Made by a program: the position numbers and the translations under genes
From: an uncultured Brachyspira sp.
GTDB lineage: Bacteria; Spirochaetota; Brachyspiria; Brachyspirales; Brachyspiraceae
Length of the DNA stretch: 64,000 nt
Direction of reading: 5' to 3'
Assembly (NCBI RefSeq): GCF_944388875.1
Contig: NZ_CALXKQ010000001.1
Span: 186,001-250,000, forward strand
In this document: positions 3,197 to 11,679 of the stretch, one piece after another
How positions within the stretch are numbered: position 1 is the first letter of the stretch
Layout of the letters: every line of letters starts with the position of its first letter
Notes under the pieces: model-generated
The model's input: only the letters and a program-made list of their open reading frames with translations
Told to the model about the DNA's origin: nothing
Database searches by the model: none

Positions 3197-3208
3197 ATAT
3201 ATTGACTA

Positions 3209-3937
3209 TTATTGAAAAATATTCATTTTAATAATTATAATCATAATTATTATACTAAATATTGGTGAAAATATAGATATAAATAATAATTTTTTGTTTA
3301 ATTTGGATATGTTATCATCAGTATTTTTATTTATATCATCAATTTTTATATTAATATTATTATTAAGTTCTTCTATTTTAGCGTTTAATAAATTATCTGA
3401 ATTAGAAAGATTATCCCTAAAAATATTTAATTCTTCTTTTAAGGAATTATTAACAGTATCAGTTTTTCTGTTAGCTTCTTCTGCTTTTGTATTAATATTA
3501 TTATTAAGTTCTTCTATTTTAGCGTTTAATAAATTATCTGAATTAGAAAGATTATCCCTAAAAATATTTAATTCTTCTTTTAAGGAATTATTAACAGTAT
3601 CAATTTTTCTGTTAGCTTCTTCTACTTTTGTATTAATATTATTATTAAGTTCTTTTATTTTAGCGTTTAATAAATTATTAAAATCATTTTTTAGATCAAG
3701 TATATTTTTTTCTATATCATTAAATTTTAAATTATTTTTATTGAAATTATCTTTAGTAGATTCTGAATGTTTATTAAAAGTATCCCAAAAATCTCCTGCT
3801 TTATCAATAACAATATCTTTCATTTCTCTTATCTTATCAGAATCATCTCTTACAGAATCTATATACGATAATTTACTTTGAAATTTTTTCATATTATTAA
3901 GTAGGTCTTCGATTTTCTGCAATAGTTTATCTTCCAT
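3209..3937 (-). CDS. Coiled-coil protein with 47-residue tandem repeats and a C-terminal membrane anchor
   Basis: No family is recognised for this 242-residue protein. Residues 1-85 are charged and helical. Residues 88-134 and 135-181 are near-identical 47-residue units beginning LLNAKI and containing NNSLKEELNIFRDN; a partial third unit runs to about residue 205. Residues 217-238 form one hydrophobic segment with a short tail, so it is probably a tail-anchored protein with the coil in the cytoplasm. It is the last gene of the GTPase operon, 28 bases after the preceding gene. The even heptad pattern suggests a tether or spacer that could change length by repeat gain or loss. Confidence 0.6.
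   Translation of the reverse strand: MEDKLLQKIEDLLNNMKKFQSKLSYIDSVRDDSDKIREMKDIVIDKAGDFWDTFNKHSESTKDNFNKNNLKFNDIEKNILDLKNDFNNLLNAKIKELNNNINTKVEEANRKIDTVNNSLKEELNIFRDNLSNSDNLLNAKIEELNNNINTKAEEANRKTDTVNNSLKEELNIFRDNLSNSDNLLNAKIEELNNNINIKIDDINKNTDDNISKLNKKLLFISIFSPIFSIIIMIIIIKMNIFQ
3395..3676 (-). repeat. 141-bp tandem repeat inside the coiled-coil gene
   Basis: Two consecutive 141-base units encode the 47-residue repeats with only a few substitutions; a partial third copy continues to about 3320. The unit length is a multiple of three, so copy-number change would preserve the reading frame. Confidence 0.8.
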
Positions 3938-3965
3938 TTATTATTCCCTATTTTATATTTTAAAT

Positions 3966-4847
3966 TTATTTCAATGTATTAAAAAGATTATTAATAATTT
4001 TATCTCTATTGTCATAATATTTTCTTTTATTTTCTATTTCACTATAATCTAAATTCATATTATTATCTAATTCTTTTTTTATTGAATTTATAGAATCTAA
4101 ATTATCATTTCTAACTCTTTCTATATTTCTATATATAAAATCTATTGTACTCTCTGTTATAAAATCCAAATCTCTATAATACTTATCCAAATATTCATTT
4201 ATAACTTCATCTATATATCTATTCATACTTGAAGAACGTTCACTTGGATTATTCATGCCTAATATTGATATACATTTATAATCAGACAAAGATAATCTGC
4301 TGTCAACATTTAATGAAAAAGAATTACTAAAATTATCTATAAATTTATCAAAATTAAATCTTAAAGAATCTATATCTATATTTATTCCGTATGAACATAT
4401 ATCATCTTTTATAAATTTTTCTATACTATCAAAAGATTCCTCCACATTTGAAGTAAAAAGTTCTTCAATTACTGAAGTTTTATCTCTTAAATCTGCTTTC
4501 ATATTATTAAGCATGATTTGTAAATTACGAAGCTCTGCCATAGTAGCATCATGCGGATCATAGGCAGTCATACTTTCTATATCTTTATTAGACTGGTCAG
4601 AAAGTTTTTTAGCAGCATTTTTTATAAATTTTATTACTTTATCAACTCTTTGAGGATAAGGAAACTTTGGTTCAGGAGGTATAACTTTTAACGCTTTAGA
4701 TGCTATACTGCCTACATATTTTCCCACTGTACCTGCTGCAGTTGATATTGCGGTACCTGCACTAGCCAAAACACTTCCAGCAGTTGCCGCAGCACTTGAA
4801 GCAGCACTCAATATAGCACTGCCTAATCCTATCAATAATCCAAACAT
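3966..4847 (-). CDS. GTPase-operon helical protein with Gly/Ala-rich N-terminus (paralogue 3)
   Basis: This 293-residue protein is one of three related proteins behind the dynamin-like GTPase. Residues 1-55 are rich in Gly, Ala and Ser with hydrophobic stretches, suggestive of a membrane-inserting or hairpin segment. A segment starting YDPHDAT (about residue 96) matches YDSRTAT in the protein at 5521-6270. The shared core has F-rich helices followed by LSDYKCISIL (residues 187-196), and the C-terminus is a helix with SINSIKKELDNNM and a final K-x2-Y-x-x-R-x-K-I-I-x-x-L pattern. AGGAG precedes the start. No known family was recognised; a membrane-associated partner of the GTPase is inferred. 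Confidence 0.6.
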   Translation of the reverse strand: MFGLLIGLGSAILSAASSAAATAGSVLASAGTAISTAAGTVGKYVGSIASKALKVIPPEPKFPYPQRVDKVIKFIKNAAKKLSDQSNKDIESMTAYDPHDATMAELRNLQIMLNNMKADLRDKTSVIEELFTSNVEESFDSIEKFIKDDICSYGINIDIDSLRFNFDKFIDNFSNSFSLNVDSRLSLSDYKCISILGMNNPSERSSSMNRYIDEVINEYLDKYYRDLDFITESTIDFIYRNIERVRNDNLDSINSIKKELDNNMNLDYSEIENKRKYYDNRDKIINNLFNTLK

Positions 4848-4883
4848 TTTGTTTCTCCTAATTTATATAATTTTATAAATATA

Positions 4884-5513
4884 TTAACTAATTATTGTCT
4901 CTAAAAGATTATCTATAGATTTCTTTTTCTTGTTATAAACTCTTCTCTTTTTAGCTATATCTTTTTTTTTAGCTTCCATTTCTGTATCTATTTGCTGATT
5001 TATATTTTTTAATTCTTTTCTATGTTCTCTCATGGTTTTATTTACATCTTTCTTTATTTTTTTTAAGGTGATATCTGTTATTTCATCTATATTTTGACAA
5101 ACTTTTTTTAAAGCTTCATCAGTAAGTTCCTTAATATATGCTTTAATCTTAGTATTTCTATACTTAGCCCTTTTCAATTTTAAAATATTAAAACATTTAG
5201 TATCAGATATATCTATATGTTTTAATACATCATTTGAAAAAGTCATTTGAAAATCATGCATTATTTTATTATATGTTTTTTCTATATCAGAAATATCAAT
5301 TATATCATTATATTTTTTTATTTTTTTTAAAAAAGTTTCTAAATTTTTCTTAATATTTTTTGTAATTTTTATTTCAATTTTATTTAACTGCTTTAAACTA
5401 GTTTTCCTATTTCTTTCAAGAAAATTATTTAATGTCTTAGTAATTTTAAATTGTTGTTTACTACTAACTTTCTTTTTAGAAACTCTTTTTTTATTTCCAA
5501 AAGAATACCACAT
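4884..5513 (-). CDS. GTPase-operon helical basic protein (paralogue 2)
   Basis: This 209-residue, lysine-rich, wholly helical protein shares its second half with both neighbours. The shared parts are F-S-N-D-V-L followed by ISDTKCFNIL (residues 102-111), a conserved helix, and an ending in KKKKSIDNLLETI. It lacks the hydrophobic or Gly/Ala-rich N-terminus of the other two and instead begins with the basic stretch KKRVSKKK, so it is probably cytoplasmic or binds acidic lipid. It starts only seven bases after the previous stop and has no clear ribosome binding site, which suggests translational coupling. Function unknown; partnership with the GTPase is inferred from operon position and paralogy. 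Confidence 0.6.
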   Translation of the reverse strand: MWYSFGNKKRVSKKKVSSKQQFKITKTLNNFLERNRKTSLKQLNKIEIKITKNIKKNLETFLKKIKKYNDIIDISDIEKTYNKIMHDFQMTFSNDVLKHIDISDTKCFNILKLKRAKYRNTKIKAYIKELTDEALKKVCQNIDEITDITLKKIKKDVNKTMREHRKELKNINQQIDTEMEAKKKDIAKKRRVYNKKKKSIDNLLETIIS

Positions 5514-5520
5514 GATTGTA

Positions 5521-6270
5521 TTAAGCCATTAAAGATTTGATGATTTTTTCTCTTCTTTCATATTCTTTTTTCTTCTTTTCTATTTCATCATCTCTTAATT
5601 TCATGTTTTCATTTAATTCTTTTTTAATATTATTTATACTTTCTTTATGATTCGATAAAGATCTATTAATATTTTCTTCTATGGCAGATATAGAATTTTT
5701 TGTTATATCATCTATACCTTTACAGAAATTATCCAAAGCATCGTCTATCAAACCATTTAAATAATTCTCCATTTTTTTTCTTTTTGTACTAGTATCCTCT
5801 ATTTTCAAAATATCTTCACATTTACCATTAGATAAAGATATTTTATCTAATACAGTACTTGCAAAATTATTTCTAAAGTCATATATAGATTCATTAAATT
5901 TTATATCTATATCATTTATATTAATAATCTTAGAATCATTATTAGATTTTAGAATTTTTTTGTCTATTTCTTTTAATATTTTATTAAAAATATCTCTGGC
6001 ATACTTAATAGTTGCTTCTTCCTTATCATGAAGTATTTTTCTATATTTGTCTCTTGTTTCATCAAGAAATTTATTCATCTCCATAGTCTGATTAATAGTT
6101 GCAGTTCTTGAATCATAAACTACATCAGGCATTTCCTCTGTTACTTCATATGAAGTTTCTCTTCCTTTACTTCTAGTACCAGAAAATATACCTACTACTG
6201 TATCTTTTACAGTTTCAACGACATCGCAAAATGTATCCCAAGCATCACTTAAAAAATCAAAAAATCCCAT
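5521..6270 (-). CDS. GTPase-operon helical protein with amphipathic N-terminus (paralogue 1)
   Basis: The gene lies 28 bases after the GTPase gene and has a strong AGGAG site. The 249-residue product begins with an aromatic amphipathic segment (FFDFLSDAWDTFCDVV, residues 3-18), likely to sit in a membrane face. YDSRTAT near residue 52 matches paralogue 3. The shared core motif is LSNGKCEDIL (residues 146-155). The C-terminal helix carries SINNIKKELNENM and ends EYERREKIIKSLM, again shared with the two downstream proteins. The order and relatedness suggest three versions of one helical scaffold that differ in their N-terminal membrane element. No annotated family was recognised. Confidence 0.6.
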   Translation of the reverse strand: MGFFDFLSDAWDTFCDVVETVKDTVVGIFSGTRSKGRETSYEVTEEMPDVVYDSRTATINQTMEMNKFLDETRDKYRKILHDKEEATIKYARDIFNKILKEIDKKILKSNNDSKIININDIDIKFNESIYDFRNNFASTVLDKISLSNGKCEDILKIEDTSTKRKKMENYLNGLIDDALDNFCKGIDDITKNSISAIEENINRSLSNHKESINNIKKELNENMKLRDDEIEKKKKEYERREKIIKSLMA

Positions 6271-6298
6271 ATTATATCTCCTTTATTTTTAATAATTA

Positions 6299-7693
6299 TT
6301 AACTTCTTATAGCTCTCTTTAACTTTTCATTTTGTTCAAGCCATTTACTTTTTATATCTTCAAATGCTTTAGTTAAACCATTCATAGTTTCTTCTATTAA
6401 TTCTATTTCTTTATTTTTAGCAAGTTTAAATGCCTCTTTCTCTTCAACATCCATATCAAGAGTTTTTCTGCTCTCTTCATTAGCTAAATTTAATTCATGA
6501 GCTTTATTATTAATATTTGTGATCATACTATTATATCTTCTCTCTAAATCCCCCATTGCTATTTCTATGCCTTTTGAAAGTATATCTCTAGTCATTAAAG
6601 AATGAACTTTATCTATATTGGTATATTCTTTGATTTTATCAGCATTTTCTAAAATAGAATTTGGATTCATCATACTTACATTTATTCCATAATTTTTGGC
6701 AAGCTTTAAGATAGCAAATAAAGCCTCCTCATTAGTATAATCAGAAGTTTTTTTCATATCCAATATATTAGAATGTATAAAAGAAGATATTCCTATTATA
6801 TTTTTATTAAGTAAATTTTCATCTTTATAATAATCTTTTAAATAACTTTTCCAATTATCATGTAATTTTTTCCAGTCTTCCTGTGTCTTATTAAGCATGT
6901 CGATTTTTGTACCAAGAATTATTATTTTATACAAATCATCACCTGCATTTTCAAAAACTTTTGTGAGAGTTAAATAATCTTCATTAGTAAGCGAATTAGT
7001 AGAGTTTACACATACTATAACAACATTAGCTCTTTTTATGTAATCTCTTGTAATATTAGAACGATATTCTACAACATCATTAAGCCCCGGAGTATCTACT
7101 ATTGTAACATTTTTTGGAACTCTTGTATTATTTAGTTCTACTATGAGTTCTTTTACAAAATAATGCTCTCTGCTTTGCTTAGAAGTATATTTTTTTACTT
7201 TTTCTTTTAATTCATTTATGTCGGAAACATTTATTACTTCATCACTTCGTCCTATATAACTGCTTTCTATTTCATTTGAACGTAAACTATCATATTCCTC
7301 TCTAAAAATTCTATTTTTACTTCTATTTTCTGATTCTTCAACACTTTTCCATAATTTATTCCATTCTTCTCTATTGTAGAATTTTACAACCAATCTATTT
7401 TGATCACTGTATTTGAATTTAGTTAAAGAAGCGGTTTCCGGAGTAACTTCAGTAGAAGCAATATAATCTTCAAAAAGAGCATTAATAAAAGTAGACTTCC
7501 CAGCTTTTATAGTACCTACAATGGCAATTTGAAGACCTGGATCATCAAGGAATTCTTTTTGATCTTTAATATCTCTTTTCTCAGCAGATAAATCTTCGCC
7601 TAATTCTTTTTCTACTTTATTAATAGCTTCTTCTATATCAGCTATTTTTCTTTTTTGTCTTTCAACTTCTTTATTTAAAGTATCTAATGTCAT
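6299..7693 (-). CDS. Dynamin-like GTPase
   Basis: This large-GTPase homologue is 464 residues from the ATG at 7693, chosen because GGAG lies upstream; an in-frame TTG 12 bases earlier overlaps that site. A helical region (about residues 1-50) precedes the G domain. The P-loop GTIKAGKST (residues 61-69) is followed by a TPETAS switch I segment, DTPGLND (200-206) as G3 and TKID (262-265) as G4. The remainder is helical, ending in a long charged coil. No transmembrane segment or paddle is obvious, so membrane contact may come from the downstream partner proteins. Bacterial relatives remodel membranes, and some act in toxin secretion or phage defence; which applies here cannot be told. Confidence 0.85.
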   Translation of the reverse strand: MTLDTLNKEVERQKRKIADIEEAINKVEKELGEDLSAEKRDIKDQKEFLDDPGLQIAIVGTIKAGKSTFINALFEDYIASTEVTPETASLTKFKYSDQNRLVVKFYNREEWNKLWKSVEESENRSKNRIFREEYDSLRSNEIESSYIGRSDEVINVSDINELKEKVKKYTSKQSREHYFVKELIVELNNTRVPKNVTIVDTPGLNDVVEYRSNITRDYIKRANVVIVCVNSTNSLTNEDYLTLTKVFENAGDDLYKIIILGTKIDMLNKTQEDWKKLHDNWKSYLKDYYKDENLLNKNIIGISSFIHSNILDMKKTSDYTNEEALFAILKLAKNYGINVSMMNPNSILENADKIKEYTNIDKVHSLMTRDILSKGIEIAMGDLERRYNSMITNINNKAHELNLANEESRKTLDMDVEEKEAFKLAKNKEIELIEETMNGLTKAFEDIKSKWLEQNEKLKRAIRS

Positions 7694-7734
7694 AGAATTC
7701 TCCAATATTAAAATTAATTTATTATGCTTATTAT

Positions 7735-7763
7735 ATTATAATATTATTATATATAAAAAACAA
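7735..7763 (-). promoter_or_regulatory. Promoter for the dynamin-like GTPase operon
   Basis: On the minus strand TTGTTT (7758-7763) and TATAAT (7735-7740) are 17 bases apart, about 42 bases before the GTPase start. The region is extremely A/T-rich, so chance matches are possible. Confidence 0.4.
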
Positions 7764-7840
7764 GGTTGTTTTGCATATTATTAATACATTCTATTTTAAT
7801 TAAAAATTAGTGTGTAATTATTTAATTTACATTTTAAATA

Positions 7841-8014
7841 TTATTTTTTTATAATATTGTCAATAGATTTAGTATCCCTGCTTCCGCATTTAGGACATTT
7901 TGGTTTAGACAAAATAGAAAATATCATATTTCCCAAAATAGGCTTTTTACTTTTACTAAAAATTTTTCCGCAAGAATTACACATATACATAAAAGGCGGA
8001 TTAAAAGGCAGCAT
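7841..8014 (-). CDS. Small zinc-ribbon protein, 57 residues
   Basis: This short gene is easy to miss. Reading the minus strand from the ATG at 8014 gives a 57-residue protein starting MLPFNPPFMYMC. It carries two cysteine pairs, CNSC at residues 12-15 and CPKC at residues 40-43, the geometry of a zinc ribbon or rubredoxin-like knuckle. An AGGAG site lies six bases before the start. The opposite-strand reading frame over the same bases is its shadow. It resembles the small regulatory-protein zinc ribbons found widely in bacteria; no specific function can be assigned. It sits just upstream of the GTPase operon with about 145 bases between. Confidence 0.7.
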   Translation of the reverse strand: MLPFNPPFMYMCNSCGKIFSKSKKPILGNMIFSILSKPKCPKCGSRDTKSIDNIIKK

Positions 8015-10291: not shown

Positions 10292-10494
10292 AATAAACAT
10301 CTCCAATAAAATAGTTATTAATAATGATTTTCGGAATTATATAGTGCTAAATTTAATAGCATAAATAATTTTTAAATCTTATTTTAAATATAATAAAAAT
10401 ATTATTTTATGCATACAAAAAATAAAAAATACTTGAATATTATTTATAATAAAATAAAATATTTCACTATAAATAATAATTATGGAATATGAAT

Positions 10495-11679
10495 ATGAAT
10501 AATAAAATAACGAAAATAAGAATAGGTTTTTCTAATTTAGTGATATTTAGAGATATATTAAAAACAAAAGTCATAAAAAAATTAATTAAATTTTTGGATA
10601 TTTATGATGATAACAATAAAGTAATGATATTAGATCATTATTCAGATTTTTTGTACGAATTATTTAAATATAATAATACATTAGGAGATTATATATTAGA
10701 ACAAATACTTATAGATAATAATATATACATAAATAAATATATAAAAAAACAAAACATTAATCAGTCATTGGAAAAAGCATTAAAAAGTGAGCTTGATTTC
10801 TTTGAATTAATTTCATCATTCGATTTTAATGCACTGTTTAATGAAGAATATTCTAGTAATATAGTTAAATTAGAAAATAATAATATAATTTTTTATACTA
10901 TATATAAAAACCATATAAATAATATAGATAAAAAAGGATACGGCATATTCTATGGAAACAATATGTTTACACTTGATGACAAGAAAAATATTATACCAGC
11001 AAAGCATCAGGATATGCAGGATATTGAGCATTTATACGGCTATGAAAGAGAGAGAAACAAGGTTATAGCTAATACTAAAAGCCTATTAGAAGGTAAAAAA
11101 GCTAATAATGTACTTCTTTACGGCGATGCTGGAACAGGAAAAAGCAGTACTATAAAAGCAATAGCAAATATGTTTAAAGATGACGGATTAAGACTTATAG
11201 AGGTTAAAAAAAGTCAATTATCATTCATAACAGATATAATAGAAACATTAAGTTTAAGTCCTTTAAAATTTATAATATTTATAGATGATTTAACTTTCTC
11301 TTCTAATGATGATACATTTTCATATTTAAAAGCAGTGCTTGAAGGAGGGGTAAACTCTTTTCCAACAAATGTGGCAGTTTATGTTACTTCTAATTACAGA
11401 CATTTAATAAAAGAAAATTTTAATGACAGACAAGGAGATGACATTCATATAGAAGATACCATCCAGCAAATAATGAGTTTAACTAATAGGTTTGGAATAA
11501 TTATAACTTTCCAAAGACCAGATAAGGATTTATTTATTGATATAGTATTATCTTATGCTAAGGATAATAATATTCAGATGCATAAAGAAGATATTATAAA
11601 GCAGGCTGAAAGCTATGCTATAAGAAGTGCTGGAAGAAGTCCGAGAGTTGCAAGACAGTTTATAGAAACTTTGTTATAA
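10495..11679 (+). CDS. AAA-type ATPase of the DUF815 family
   Basis: The 394-residue protein has a divergent helical N-terminal half and a C-terminal P-loop ATPase. Walker A is YGDAGTGKSST (about residue 208) and Walker B is FIIFIDDLTF (about residue 260). LEGGVNSF follows, with sensor-1-like YVTSNYRHLI and a terminal arginine-rich SAGRSPRVARQF segment. This order is that of the DUF815/YcaJ-like single ATPases, whose role is unknown. I favour the ATG at 10495 because GGA lies eight bases upstream; the ATG six bases earlier is too close to that site. It is divergently transcribed from the chemoreceptor and has no partner gene. Confidence 0.85.
   Translation: MNNKITKIRIGFSNLVIFRDILKTKVIKKLIKFLDIYDDNNKVMILDHYSDFLYELFKYNNTLGDYILEQILIDNNIYINKYIKKQNINQSLEKALKSELDFFELISSFDFNALFNEEYSSNIVKLENNNIIFYTIYKNHINNIDKKGYGIFYGNNMFTLDDKKNIIPAKHQDMQDIEHLYGYERERNKVIANTKSLLEGKKANNVLLYGDAGTGKSSTIKAIANMFKDDGLRLIEVKKSQLSFITDIIETLSLSPLKFIIFIDDLTFSSNDDTFSYLKAVLEGGVNSFPTNVAVYVTSNYRHLIKENFNDRQGDDIHIEDTIQQIMSLTNRFGIIITFQRPDKDLFIDIVLSYAKDNNIQMHKEDIIKQAESYAIRSAGRSPRVARQFIETLL

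What the first reader, a model, noticed from the sequence alone, without database searches (positions are those of the whole stretch)
3209..7763. Candidate new membrane-remodelling or defence operon: dynamin-like GTPase with three paralogous helical partners
Five co-directional, closely spaced genes. The first encodes a GTPase with all G motifs but no obvious membrane anchor. The next three proteins share one core with the motif [IL]S[DN]-x-KC-x2-IL and a common terminal helix but have three different N-termini: amphipathic, basic, and Gly/Ala-rich. The last is a coiled-coil tail-anchored protein with length-variable repeats. Reading by eye suggests the partners supply the membrane contact that the GTPase lacks, like a modular membrane-binding set. 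Alternative: a dynamin-based antiphage or toxin-release system. I recognise no named system with this content.
Basis: partly seen in the sequence, partly recalled or inferred. Interest (0 to 1): 0.75.

Follow-up and report, generated by a model that had tools for sequence, protein, structure and literature searches.

The report
Dynamin-like GTPase with swappable helical adaptors
A small horizontally moving operon in Brachyspira pairs a shortened dynamin-like GTPase with a set of related helical proteins whose front ends differ, some of them membrane-seeking and others not, which looks like an undescribed modular and possibly immune system; its function is untested.

Summary
Five closely spaced minus-strand genes encode a dynamin-family GTPase, three mutually homologous helical proteins with different N-termini, and a tail-anchored coiled-coil protein. 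No Pfam, NCBIfam or PADLOC family covers the partners' shared core. The association is real: in 392-genome phylum draws the GTPase subfamily and confident partners occur in the same 4 genomes, and 6 of 6 GTPases (7 of 7 with Lachnospira) have a partner next door. The operon is an insertion (absent from 7 of 7 aligned empty sites) and moved between species (dS 0.03-0.50 against 1.38 for trxB). Heads are interchangeable: amphipathic, Gly/Ala, basic, zinc-ribbon-like, DUF1232; in one genome the C-terminal tail sits on an unrelated domain, suggesting a docking tag. The GTPase is about 270 residues shorter than full dynamin-like proteins and has no hydrophobic anchor. Best explanation: a GTPase platform whose adaptors choose the target, often the membrane. 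Defence is plausible from context only (patchy, mobile, beside WYL and BnzB-like genes in Lachnospira). 'Membrane contact' fits only some heads. Nothing was tested biochemically; the GTPase structure prediction failed; other phyla are largely unsurveyed.

The parts
6299..7705 (-). Dynamin-family GTPase, shortened (464 aa from the likely ATG at 7693; 468 aa from the TTG at 7705)
   Evidence: Dynamin_N 5.4e-22; alignment of 7; profile match to full-length DLPs only over columns 7-306 of 742; dN/dS 0.05 against B. catarrhinii
5521..6270 (-). Partner A: amphipathic N-terminus (about residues 2-30) plus shared helical core and C-terminal tail
   Evidence: AlphaFold2 helical core, 10-residue blocks mostly 76-94 pLDDT from residue 61 (two near 60), residues 1-54 under 50
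4884..5513 (-). Partner B: basic (net +30), short N-terminus, shared core; its tail is the least like the others
3966..4847 (-). Partner C: Gly/Ala-rich hydrophobic N-terminus plus shared core and tail
3209..3937 (-). T: N-terminal ~55-residue domain shared with a TPR protein of the second copy, coiled coil with 141-bp repeat, C-terminal membrane anchor
3344..3678 (.). Tandem repeat 141 bp x 2.4 inside T
3201..7841 (.). Extent of the insertion relative to empty sites (boundaries accurate to about 10-50 bases; both flanks are AT-rich)

Best explanation
This is a mobile GTPase-adaptor operon. A dynamin-family GTPase that has lost (or never had) the outer half of the stalk and the membrane paddle works as a shared motor or switch. 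Paralogous helical adaptors carry a common core and, in most, a common C-terminal tail, which I infer docks on the GTPase (or on T). Their N-termini are exchangeable heads that direct the complex: amphipathic or hydrophobic heads to the membrane, and basic, zinc-ribbon-like or other heads to other targets. T adds a permanent membrane tether through its C-terminal anchor, or, in the TPR version, a protein-binding arm. On GTP-driven assembly the complex would reshape, seal or damage the membrane. The most likely purpose is defence against phages or other mobile elements. Shown: homology, modularity, co-occurrence, insertion, transfer between species, purifying selection. Inferred: docking, membrane binding, GTP-driven assembly, defence.
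For: Co-occurrence: the GTPase subfamily profile hits 4 of 392 phylum genomes; the partner profile confidently hits the same four (ten further genomes with weak rows set aside, see Tried and rejected); 6 of 6 GTPases there have a partner as a direct neighbour, 13 of 13 full partners sit in such an operon, and Lachnospira eligens adds a seventh pair (E 1.4e-12; 94% probability). Modularity: heads are amphipathic, Gly/Ala, basic, zinc-ribbon-like (L015, below Pfam's cut-off), DUF1232 E 9.8e-14 (L042); in G022 the tail sits on an unrelated domain whose paralogues lie in the adjoining gene cluster. Tails are 65-83% identical among the four G022 proteins against 31-54% for the three comparable core pairs; A-C in the window 56% against 34%. 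Missing anchor. Mobility: absent from 7 of 7 aligned empty sites; the second copy beside trxB is absent from the 1.5 kb held downstream of trxB in 23 of 23 other loci that extend that far; operon dS 0.03-0.50 against trxB 1.38 between the window genome and B. catarrhinii. Selection keeps the genes: dN/dS 0.05 G, 0.19 A, 0.38 B, 0.17 C; among 30-codon windows of A, B and C the head of A is the least conserved. Defence context: WYL regulator and BnzB-like gene (PADLOC 3.5e-21) beside the Lachnospira GTPase; homologues of that BnzB-like protein lie beside WYL and a full Bunzi pair on lactococcal plasmid p267C and beside WYL on pNP40. A dynamin already reported to resist phage: B. subtilis DynA (PMC8844932, abstract read).
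Against: No docking, membrane or GTPase assay exists. For partner B tail and core are about equally conserved (four pairs in window and G006: tail 26-37%, core 28-41%; tail higher in two of the four by 1 and 6 points). In G022 codon sharing in the tails exceeds expectation for C-Z (27 of 30 against 18.5, sd 2.5) and A-C (25 of 30 against 18.4), and for their cores too, so part of the tail similarity there may be recent recombination or descent; the window A-C tails are at expectation (14 of 21 against 12.8). Zinc-ribbon-like and basic heads do not fit a purely membrane role. In Brachyspira the operon adjoins housekeeping genes, not a defence island; of the five window proteins PADLOC matches only the GTPase clearly (LeoBC 1e-7), with T to ZorA at 3e-4 as a coiled coil. 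The defence neighbours were seen in one other lineage only, and there the partner is cut by an IS element, so that copy may be dead. Those partners that were tried had no phage, viral-contig or further plasmid relative. The partner model resembles nothing significantly.
Confidence: 0.45

Rival explanations
1. Effector reading: the amphipathic and Gly/Ala N-termini are themselves membrane-breaking devices; the GTPase is a trigger or assembly switch that releases them on infection, killing or arresting the cell.
For: Heads such as that of the C17 partner are short cationic amphipathic helices; the head of A is the fastest-changing stretch among the windows computed for A, B and C; defence-like context in Lachnospira.
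Against: Basic and zinc-ribbon-like heads have no such property; no antitoxin-like gene among the five; three or four co-expressed variants are more than a killer needs (inference).
Confidence: 0.2
2. Envelope housekeeping reading: an accessory dynamin system for membrane repair, vesicle release or stress tolerance, as proposed for LeoABC and for DynA under antibiotics, not for defence.
For: Dynamin-family GTPase; LeoABC affects vesicle-associated secretion (PMC4159319, abstract and one results section read); window neighbours are purE/purC and a chemoreceptor (recognised by eye), not defence genes.
Against: Present in 3 of 26 Brachyspira, transferred between species, copies with different heads; housekeeping would predict wider retention.
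Confidence: 0.2
3. Split dynamin: the partners are the detached stalk and paddle of a dynamin, so GTPase plus partner equal one ordinary dynamin-like protein, as LeoB plus LeoC do.
For: The GTPase lacks the C-terminal part of a full DLP; the top structural row for partner A is the helical region 536-677 of Campylobacter DLP1 (5owv, Z 9.1, rmsd 5.1, 128 aligned).
Against: Z under about 13 means little for helical bundles by the tool's own note; axonemal and BAR proteins score 8.4-8.8 just below; profile comparison with dynamins, mostly of this genome, gives 1.5% and 9.5% probability; several partners per GTPase.
Confidence: 0.1

Closest known systems
Bacterial dynamin-like proteins (BDLP1, C. 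jejuni DLP1/DLP2, DynA)
   Same: Dynamin_N GTPase domain; sequence hits to 5owv 7e-20 and 2j68 1.2e-10
   Different: 464 aa instead of about 700 or more; no second DLP in the operon; membrane contact, if any, would come from separate small proteins
LeoABC
   Same: Accessory, multi-gene dynamin locus; weak model matches (LeoBC 1e-7; LeoA/HP0731 24.9 bits against a cut-off of 325)
   Different: Leo proteins are all dynamin chains, LeoB/LeoC being one split chain (PMC4159319, section read); here the partners show no sequence relation to dynamins
Bunzi (BnzA/BnzB)
   Same: A BnzB-like gene and a WYL regulator lie beside the Lachnospira copy
   Different: No BnzA found there among three proteins scanned; no BnzA or BnzB match among five window and five G355 proteins scanned; neighbours of the other copies were mostly not scanned
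B. subtilis DynA phage resistance
   Same: A dynamin protein that delays lysis (PMC8844932, abstract read)
   Different: A DynA adaptor operon is not mentioned in the abstract; the rest was not read
IniBAC
   Same: Dynamins beside a small Gly/Ala-rich protein (recalled, not tested here)
   Different: IniA and IniC are full-length DLPs (recalled); relation of IniB to partner C was not tested

Membership tests
Dynamin superfamily (GTPase domain) | Dynamin_N domain with P-loop, switch-I Thr, DTPG and TKxD motifs | tested here: met
   (5.4e-22, 79 bits against a cut-off of 27), (99.9% over the G domain)
Canonical full-length bacterial DLP | Hydrophobic paddle or transmembrane membrane-binding segment in the same chain | tested here: not met
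   464 aa; no hydrophobic segment beyond the P-loop strand
Canonical full-length bacterial DLP | Long helical trunk after the G domain | tested here: inconclusive
   Alignment to 742-column DLPs ends at column 306; the AlphaFold2 model failed (pLDDT 41), so the shape of the last ~180 residues is unknown
Canonical full-length bacterial DLP | GTP-dependent assembly on membranes | not testable with these tools
   -
LeoABC | Two or three DLP genes in tandem | tested here: not met
   Only one Dynamin_N protein among the five genes; partners unrelated by profile
LeoABC | Passing NCBI's LeoA/HP0731 model cut-off (325 bits) | tested here: not met
   24.9 bits
Bunzi | BnzA and BnzB both present | tested here: not met
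   Window: neither at E 1 or better among five proteins. L. eligens: BnzB-like only, 3.5e-21, among three proteins scanned
Anti-phage defence system (functional class) | Protection against phage shown by experiment | not testable with these tools
   Context only
BAR-domain-like membrane scaffold | BAR fold of the partner core | tested here: inconclusive
   BAR or F-BAR chains at Z 6.3-8.4 among unrelated helical rows of similar Z

The most novel reading that the evidence does not exclude
A general-purpose GTPase platform with a portable C-terminal docking tag: bacteria graft the tag onto new recognition heads, including a domain whose paralogues belong to a neighbouring AAA / radical-SAM gene cluster in G022, so that one dynamin-type motor is aimed at membranes, nucleic acids or protein targets. 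It would be a cross-phylum immune system, a bacterial counterpart in logic to eukaryotic antiviral dynamin-family GTPases.
Probability: 0.3. Interest if true: 0.82.

Novelty: new variant of a known kind. Interest (0 to 1): 0.6.

Why it matters
Dynamins normally carry their membrane-binding part in the same chain. Here that part seems to be moved to a set of exchangeable small proteins, which would make one motor re-targetable and would let recruitment be studied separately from mechanics. The partners form a protein family without a Pfam, NCBIfam or PADLOC model for the shared core, found in two phyla, and the link to WYL and Bunzi-type genes in one of them gives a direct, cheap test in laboratory strains of whether such dynamin operons are immune systems.

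Tried and rejected
Split-dynamin idea: weak structural lead not supported by profile comparison. Known fold of the partner: Foldseek gave no match at E 0.001 in PDB (best 0.67) or BFVD (best 0.15); profile search of PDB sequences best E 0.22; a missing match shows nothing. Relation of partner core to the T domain: none. Phage or viral carriage: no relatives of the queries tried in phages (partner A, GTPases), viral contigs or, for partners C, G355 B and L. eligens, in plasmids beyond L. eligens; window partner B was not searched there. PHROGs: GTPase 3.4e-5, A 0.0089, C 6.9e-4 to families of unknown function, taken as weak. Gene conversion as the cause of similar tails: not needed for the window pair A-C, not excluded in G022. 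Direct repeats at the insertion ends: only AT-rich microhomology seen by eye, not pursued.

Rows dropped: G039 (E 0.0044; region fetched, phage-like genes by eye), G220 (1.8e-4; a 74-codon open frame, region listed), nine genomes with best E 3.5e-5 to 9.2e-4 (G039, G069, G090, G097, G121, G187, G229, G240, G285), taken as coiled-coil noise from their partial coverage and from the absence of the GTPase; their places were not inspected., G041 (another dynamin type with a stop, L041)., G474 (779-codon frame, 6.5e-22, taken as another dynamin type, not inspected). That searches drew the same 392 genomes is inferred from identical size and genus counts.

Limits: the single genome-contig scan used a profile of only three paralogues and found only B. 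catarrhinii, so other phyla are practically unsurveyed; first-look stages score only a few candidates per genome (4-6). trxB is one housekeeping yardstick only. Of 22 other purE loci, one (G006) ends at purE and the genes of G006 and G022 are only about 50% identical, leaving 20 informative; of 24 other trxB loci one (G002) ends at trxB, leaving 23. The AlphaFold2 model of the GTPase (two sequences) failed. Literature searches whose listings show no description of this operon: (open-licence PMC texts only); passages on dynamins in PMC12595487 and PMC10855318 were seen. Millman et al. 2022 was not held, so what Bunzi is rests on recall, on one table passage (PMC11206119) and on PADLOC names.
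Full report
What is there. The window lies in a Brachyspira genome (G000:C1): it is of one genus with G006, whose 4384-base contig C106 has the length and match position of a Brachyspira catarrhinii Z12 contig. At 3209-7705, minus strand, five genes follow one another with gaps of 28, 7, 36 and 28 bases. The first encodes a Dynamin_N GTPase (5.4e-22). The next three encode proteins of 249, 209 and 293 residues that are homologous to one another (E 1.9e-23 to 2.9e-18) and share a core motif around ISLSDxKCxxIL, an upstream YDxxxAT stretch in A and C, and a C-terminal tail. The fifth is a coiled-coil protein with a C-terminal hydrophobic anchor and a 141-bp tandem repeat. None of the partners matches Pfam, NCBIfam or PADLOC clearly; PHROGs gave only weak matches of unknown function (partners at best 6.9e-4).

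The GTPase is shortened. Against a profile of four full-length bacterial dynamin-like proteins, three of them from the same genome, it matches with 99.9% probability but only over columns 7 to 306 of 742. It ends after about 464 residues and has no hydrophobic segment other than the P-loop strand. Structure prediction from two sequences failed (pLDDT 41), so the shape of its last ~180 residues is unknown.

The partners. AlphaFold2 on six related sequences gives an all-helical core (helices from residue 54 to 248; 10-residue blocks mostly 76-94 pLDDT from residue 61, two near 60) behind an N-terminus scored under 50. Foldseek finds nothing significant in PDB or BFVD. The re-alignment puts the helical part of Campylobacter DLP1 first (Z 9.1, rmsd 5.1, 128 residues), but axonemal, BAR and other helical proteins follow closely and the tool warns against reading such values. 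Profile comparison with two sets of dynamins gives 1.5% and 9.5%. So I do not call the partners dynamin fragments.

Copies elsewhere. The same genome has a second copy on contig C17 with a GTPase, one partner with a cationic amphipathic head, and a TPR protein whose first ~55 residues match those of T. G006 has both copies. G022 has a GTPase, an amphipathic, a Gly/Ala and a zinc-ribbon-like partner (24.9 bits, below Pfam's cut-off of 34.4), a protein that carries only the shared tail behind another domain, a T homologue, and then a cluster with an AAA ATPase (CDC48/IetA-like), DUF2997 and a radical-SAM protein; paralogues of the domain that received the tail lie in that cluster. G355, of another family in the phylum, has a DUF1232-headed partner, the GTPase (36-38% identity over nearly the whole length to those of Brachyspira), a second partner, and a diverged third one (4.5e-5) fused to zinc ribbons. 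On the Lachnospira eligens megaplasmid a WYL regulator and a BnzB-like gene precede a GTPase with a weak zinc-ribbon match in front of the G domain (17.4 bits, cut-off 25) and a partner with an MGFFSSLGRALTNVKRA head; an IS256 transposase gene overlaps the partner's C-terminus. That partner scores E 1.4e-12 against a profile of the Brachyspira partners, while the best of 3000 shuffled sequences scores 0.033, and hhalign gives 94%.

Association. In the 392-genome phylum draws the GTPase subfamily is found in 4 genomes at E 1e-25 or better and the partner family confidently in the same 4 (ten genomes with weak rows set aside, named under Tried and rejected). Six of 6 GTPases have a partner next door and 13 of 13 full partners sit in an operon with a GTPase; Lachnospira makes it 7 of 7 GTPases. 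In a second draw of 297 genomes around G355 no further member was found, one distant dynamin aside. Within Brachyspira 3 of 26 species genomes have it.

Mobility. The region upstream of purE was examined in the 22 other purE loci that one search returned; none shows an operon gene, 20 of them being informative. In 7 that keep the right-hand neighbour close by I aligned the junction: all 7 lack window ~3201-7841. The second copy lies beside trxB; none of 23 other trxB loci that extend downstream has it within the 1.5 kb held. Between the window and B. catarrhinii the operon is 91% identical over 4352 bases; dS is 0.42, 0.50, 0.35, 0.12 and 0.03 for G, A, B, C and T, and 0.29 and 0.37 for the two genes of the second copy, against 1.38 for trxB. 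The operon has moved between species, with one housekeeping gene as yardstick. dN/dS of 0.05 to 0.42 shows that the genes are kept; among 30-codon windows of A, B and C the head of A is the least conserved.

Heads and tails. Heads differ in kind: amphipathic (A types; moment reached by at most 2% of shuffles in five of five Brachyspira A proteins and in L. eligens), Gly/Ala-hydrophobic (C types), basic (B), zinc-ribbon-like, DUF1232. Tails are the constant element in G022: 65-83% identity among four proteins, while the three comparable core pairs share 31-54%. In the window and in G006 this holds for A-C (56% against 33-34%) but for the four pairs that include B tail and core are about equal (26-37% against 28-41%). 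Codon sharing at identical tail residues is at expectation for the window pair A-C (14 of 21, expected 12.8), which favours selection there; in G022 it is above expectation for C-Z and A-C, in tails and cores alike, so recent descent or recombination may contribute. I infer that the tail is a docking tag, with B an exception or a different binder.

Function. The combination, a shortened dynamin GTPase plus separate proteins with membrane-seeking or other heads, suggests a motor with exchangeable targeting adaptors. Defence is the purpose I favour: patchy, mobile, diversified heads, and a Lachnospira copy beside WYL and BnzB-like genes. Homologues of that BnzB-like protein sit beside WYL on lactococcal plasmids: on p267C next to a full Bunzi pair (BnzA 4e-125, BnzB 2.7e-150) and on pNP40 next to an unknown 486-residue protein whose N-terminus weakly resembles that of the Lachnospira GTPase (E 0.002). 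In Brachyspira itself the neighbours are housekeeping genes, so this stays contextual. A dynamin that resists phage by delaying lysis is reported in B. subtilis (PMC8844932, abstract).

Novelty. The G domain is a known kind; the partner family, the adaptor arrangement and the cross-phylum operon were not found in the family libraries used or in the listings of the literature searches named under Tried and rejected. I rate it a new variant of a known kind, since only the adaptors are new. A survey of Bacillota and other phyla, which I could not run, would show how common it is.

Noticed in passing
G000 contigs C27, C18, C3 (L086 1737-7331; L087 3953-9722; L088 4228-10089): The window's genome has three further clusters of tandem dynamin-like genes, of the LeoABC / DLP1-DLP2 type by eye, besides the two copies described.
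   Followed up: partly
G000:C3 98000-108000 (L089 2100-7792): Four P-loop GTPase genes in tandem, resembling IRG-like GTPases by eye.
   Followed up: no
L041 5233-7449 (G041): A dynamin gene broken by a stop in a dynamin cluster flanked by what look like transposase genes.
   Followed up: partly
L044 11209-13145 (Lachnospira eligens megaplasmid): An IS256 transposase gene overlaps the partner gene's end and the usual C-terminal tail is missing; a second L. eligens record has an identical stretch of the partner.
   Followed up: no
L115 7091-10678 (pNP40) and L116 6079-12499 (p267C): WYL regulator plus a BnzB-like protein head variable cassettes: an unknown 486-aa protein on pNP40, a full Bunzi pair on p267C; zinc-ribbon proteins lie on the other side.
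   Followed up: partly
L015 3-5245 (G022): AAA ATPase, DUF2997, radical-SAM and two paralogues of an unnamed domain lie downstream; a third paralogue (6397-7140) carries the partner tail.
   Followed up: partly
L014 1-2638 (G000:C17): Two DUF262-like genes by eye, one of them HEC-06/SspE-like by PADLOC, about 4.6 kb from the second copy.
   Followed up: no
window 10489-11679: DUF815-type AAA ATPase (E 4.3e-78) beyond the chemoreceptor gene.
   Followed up: no
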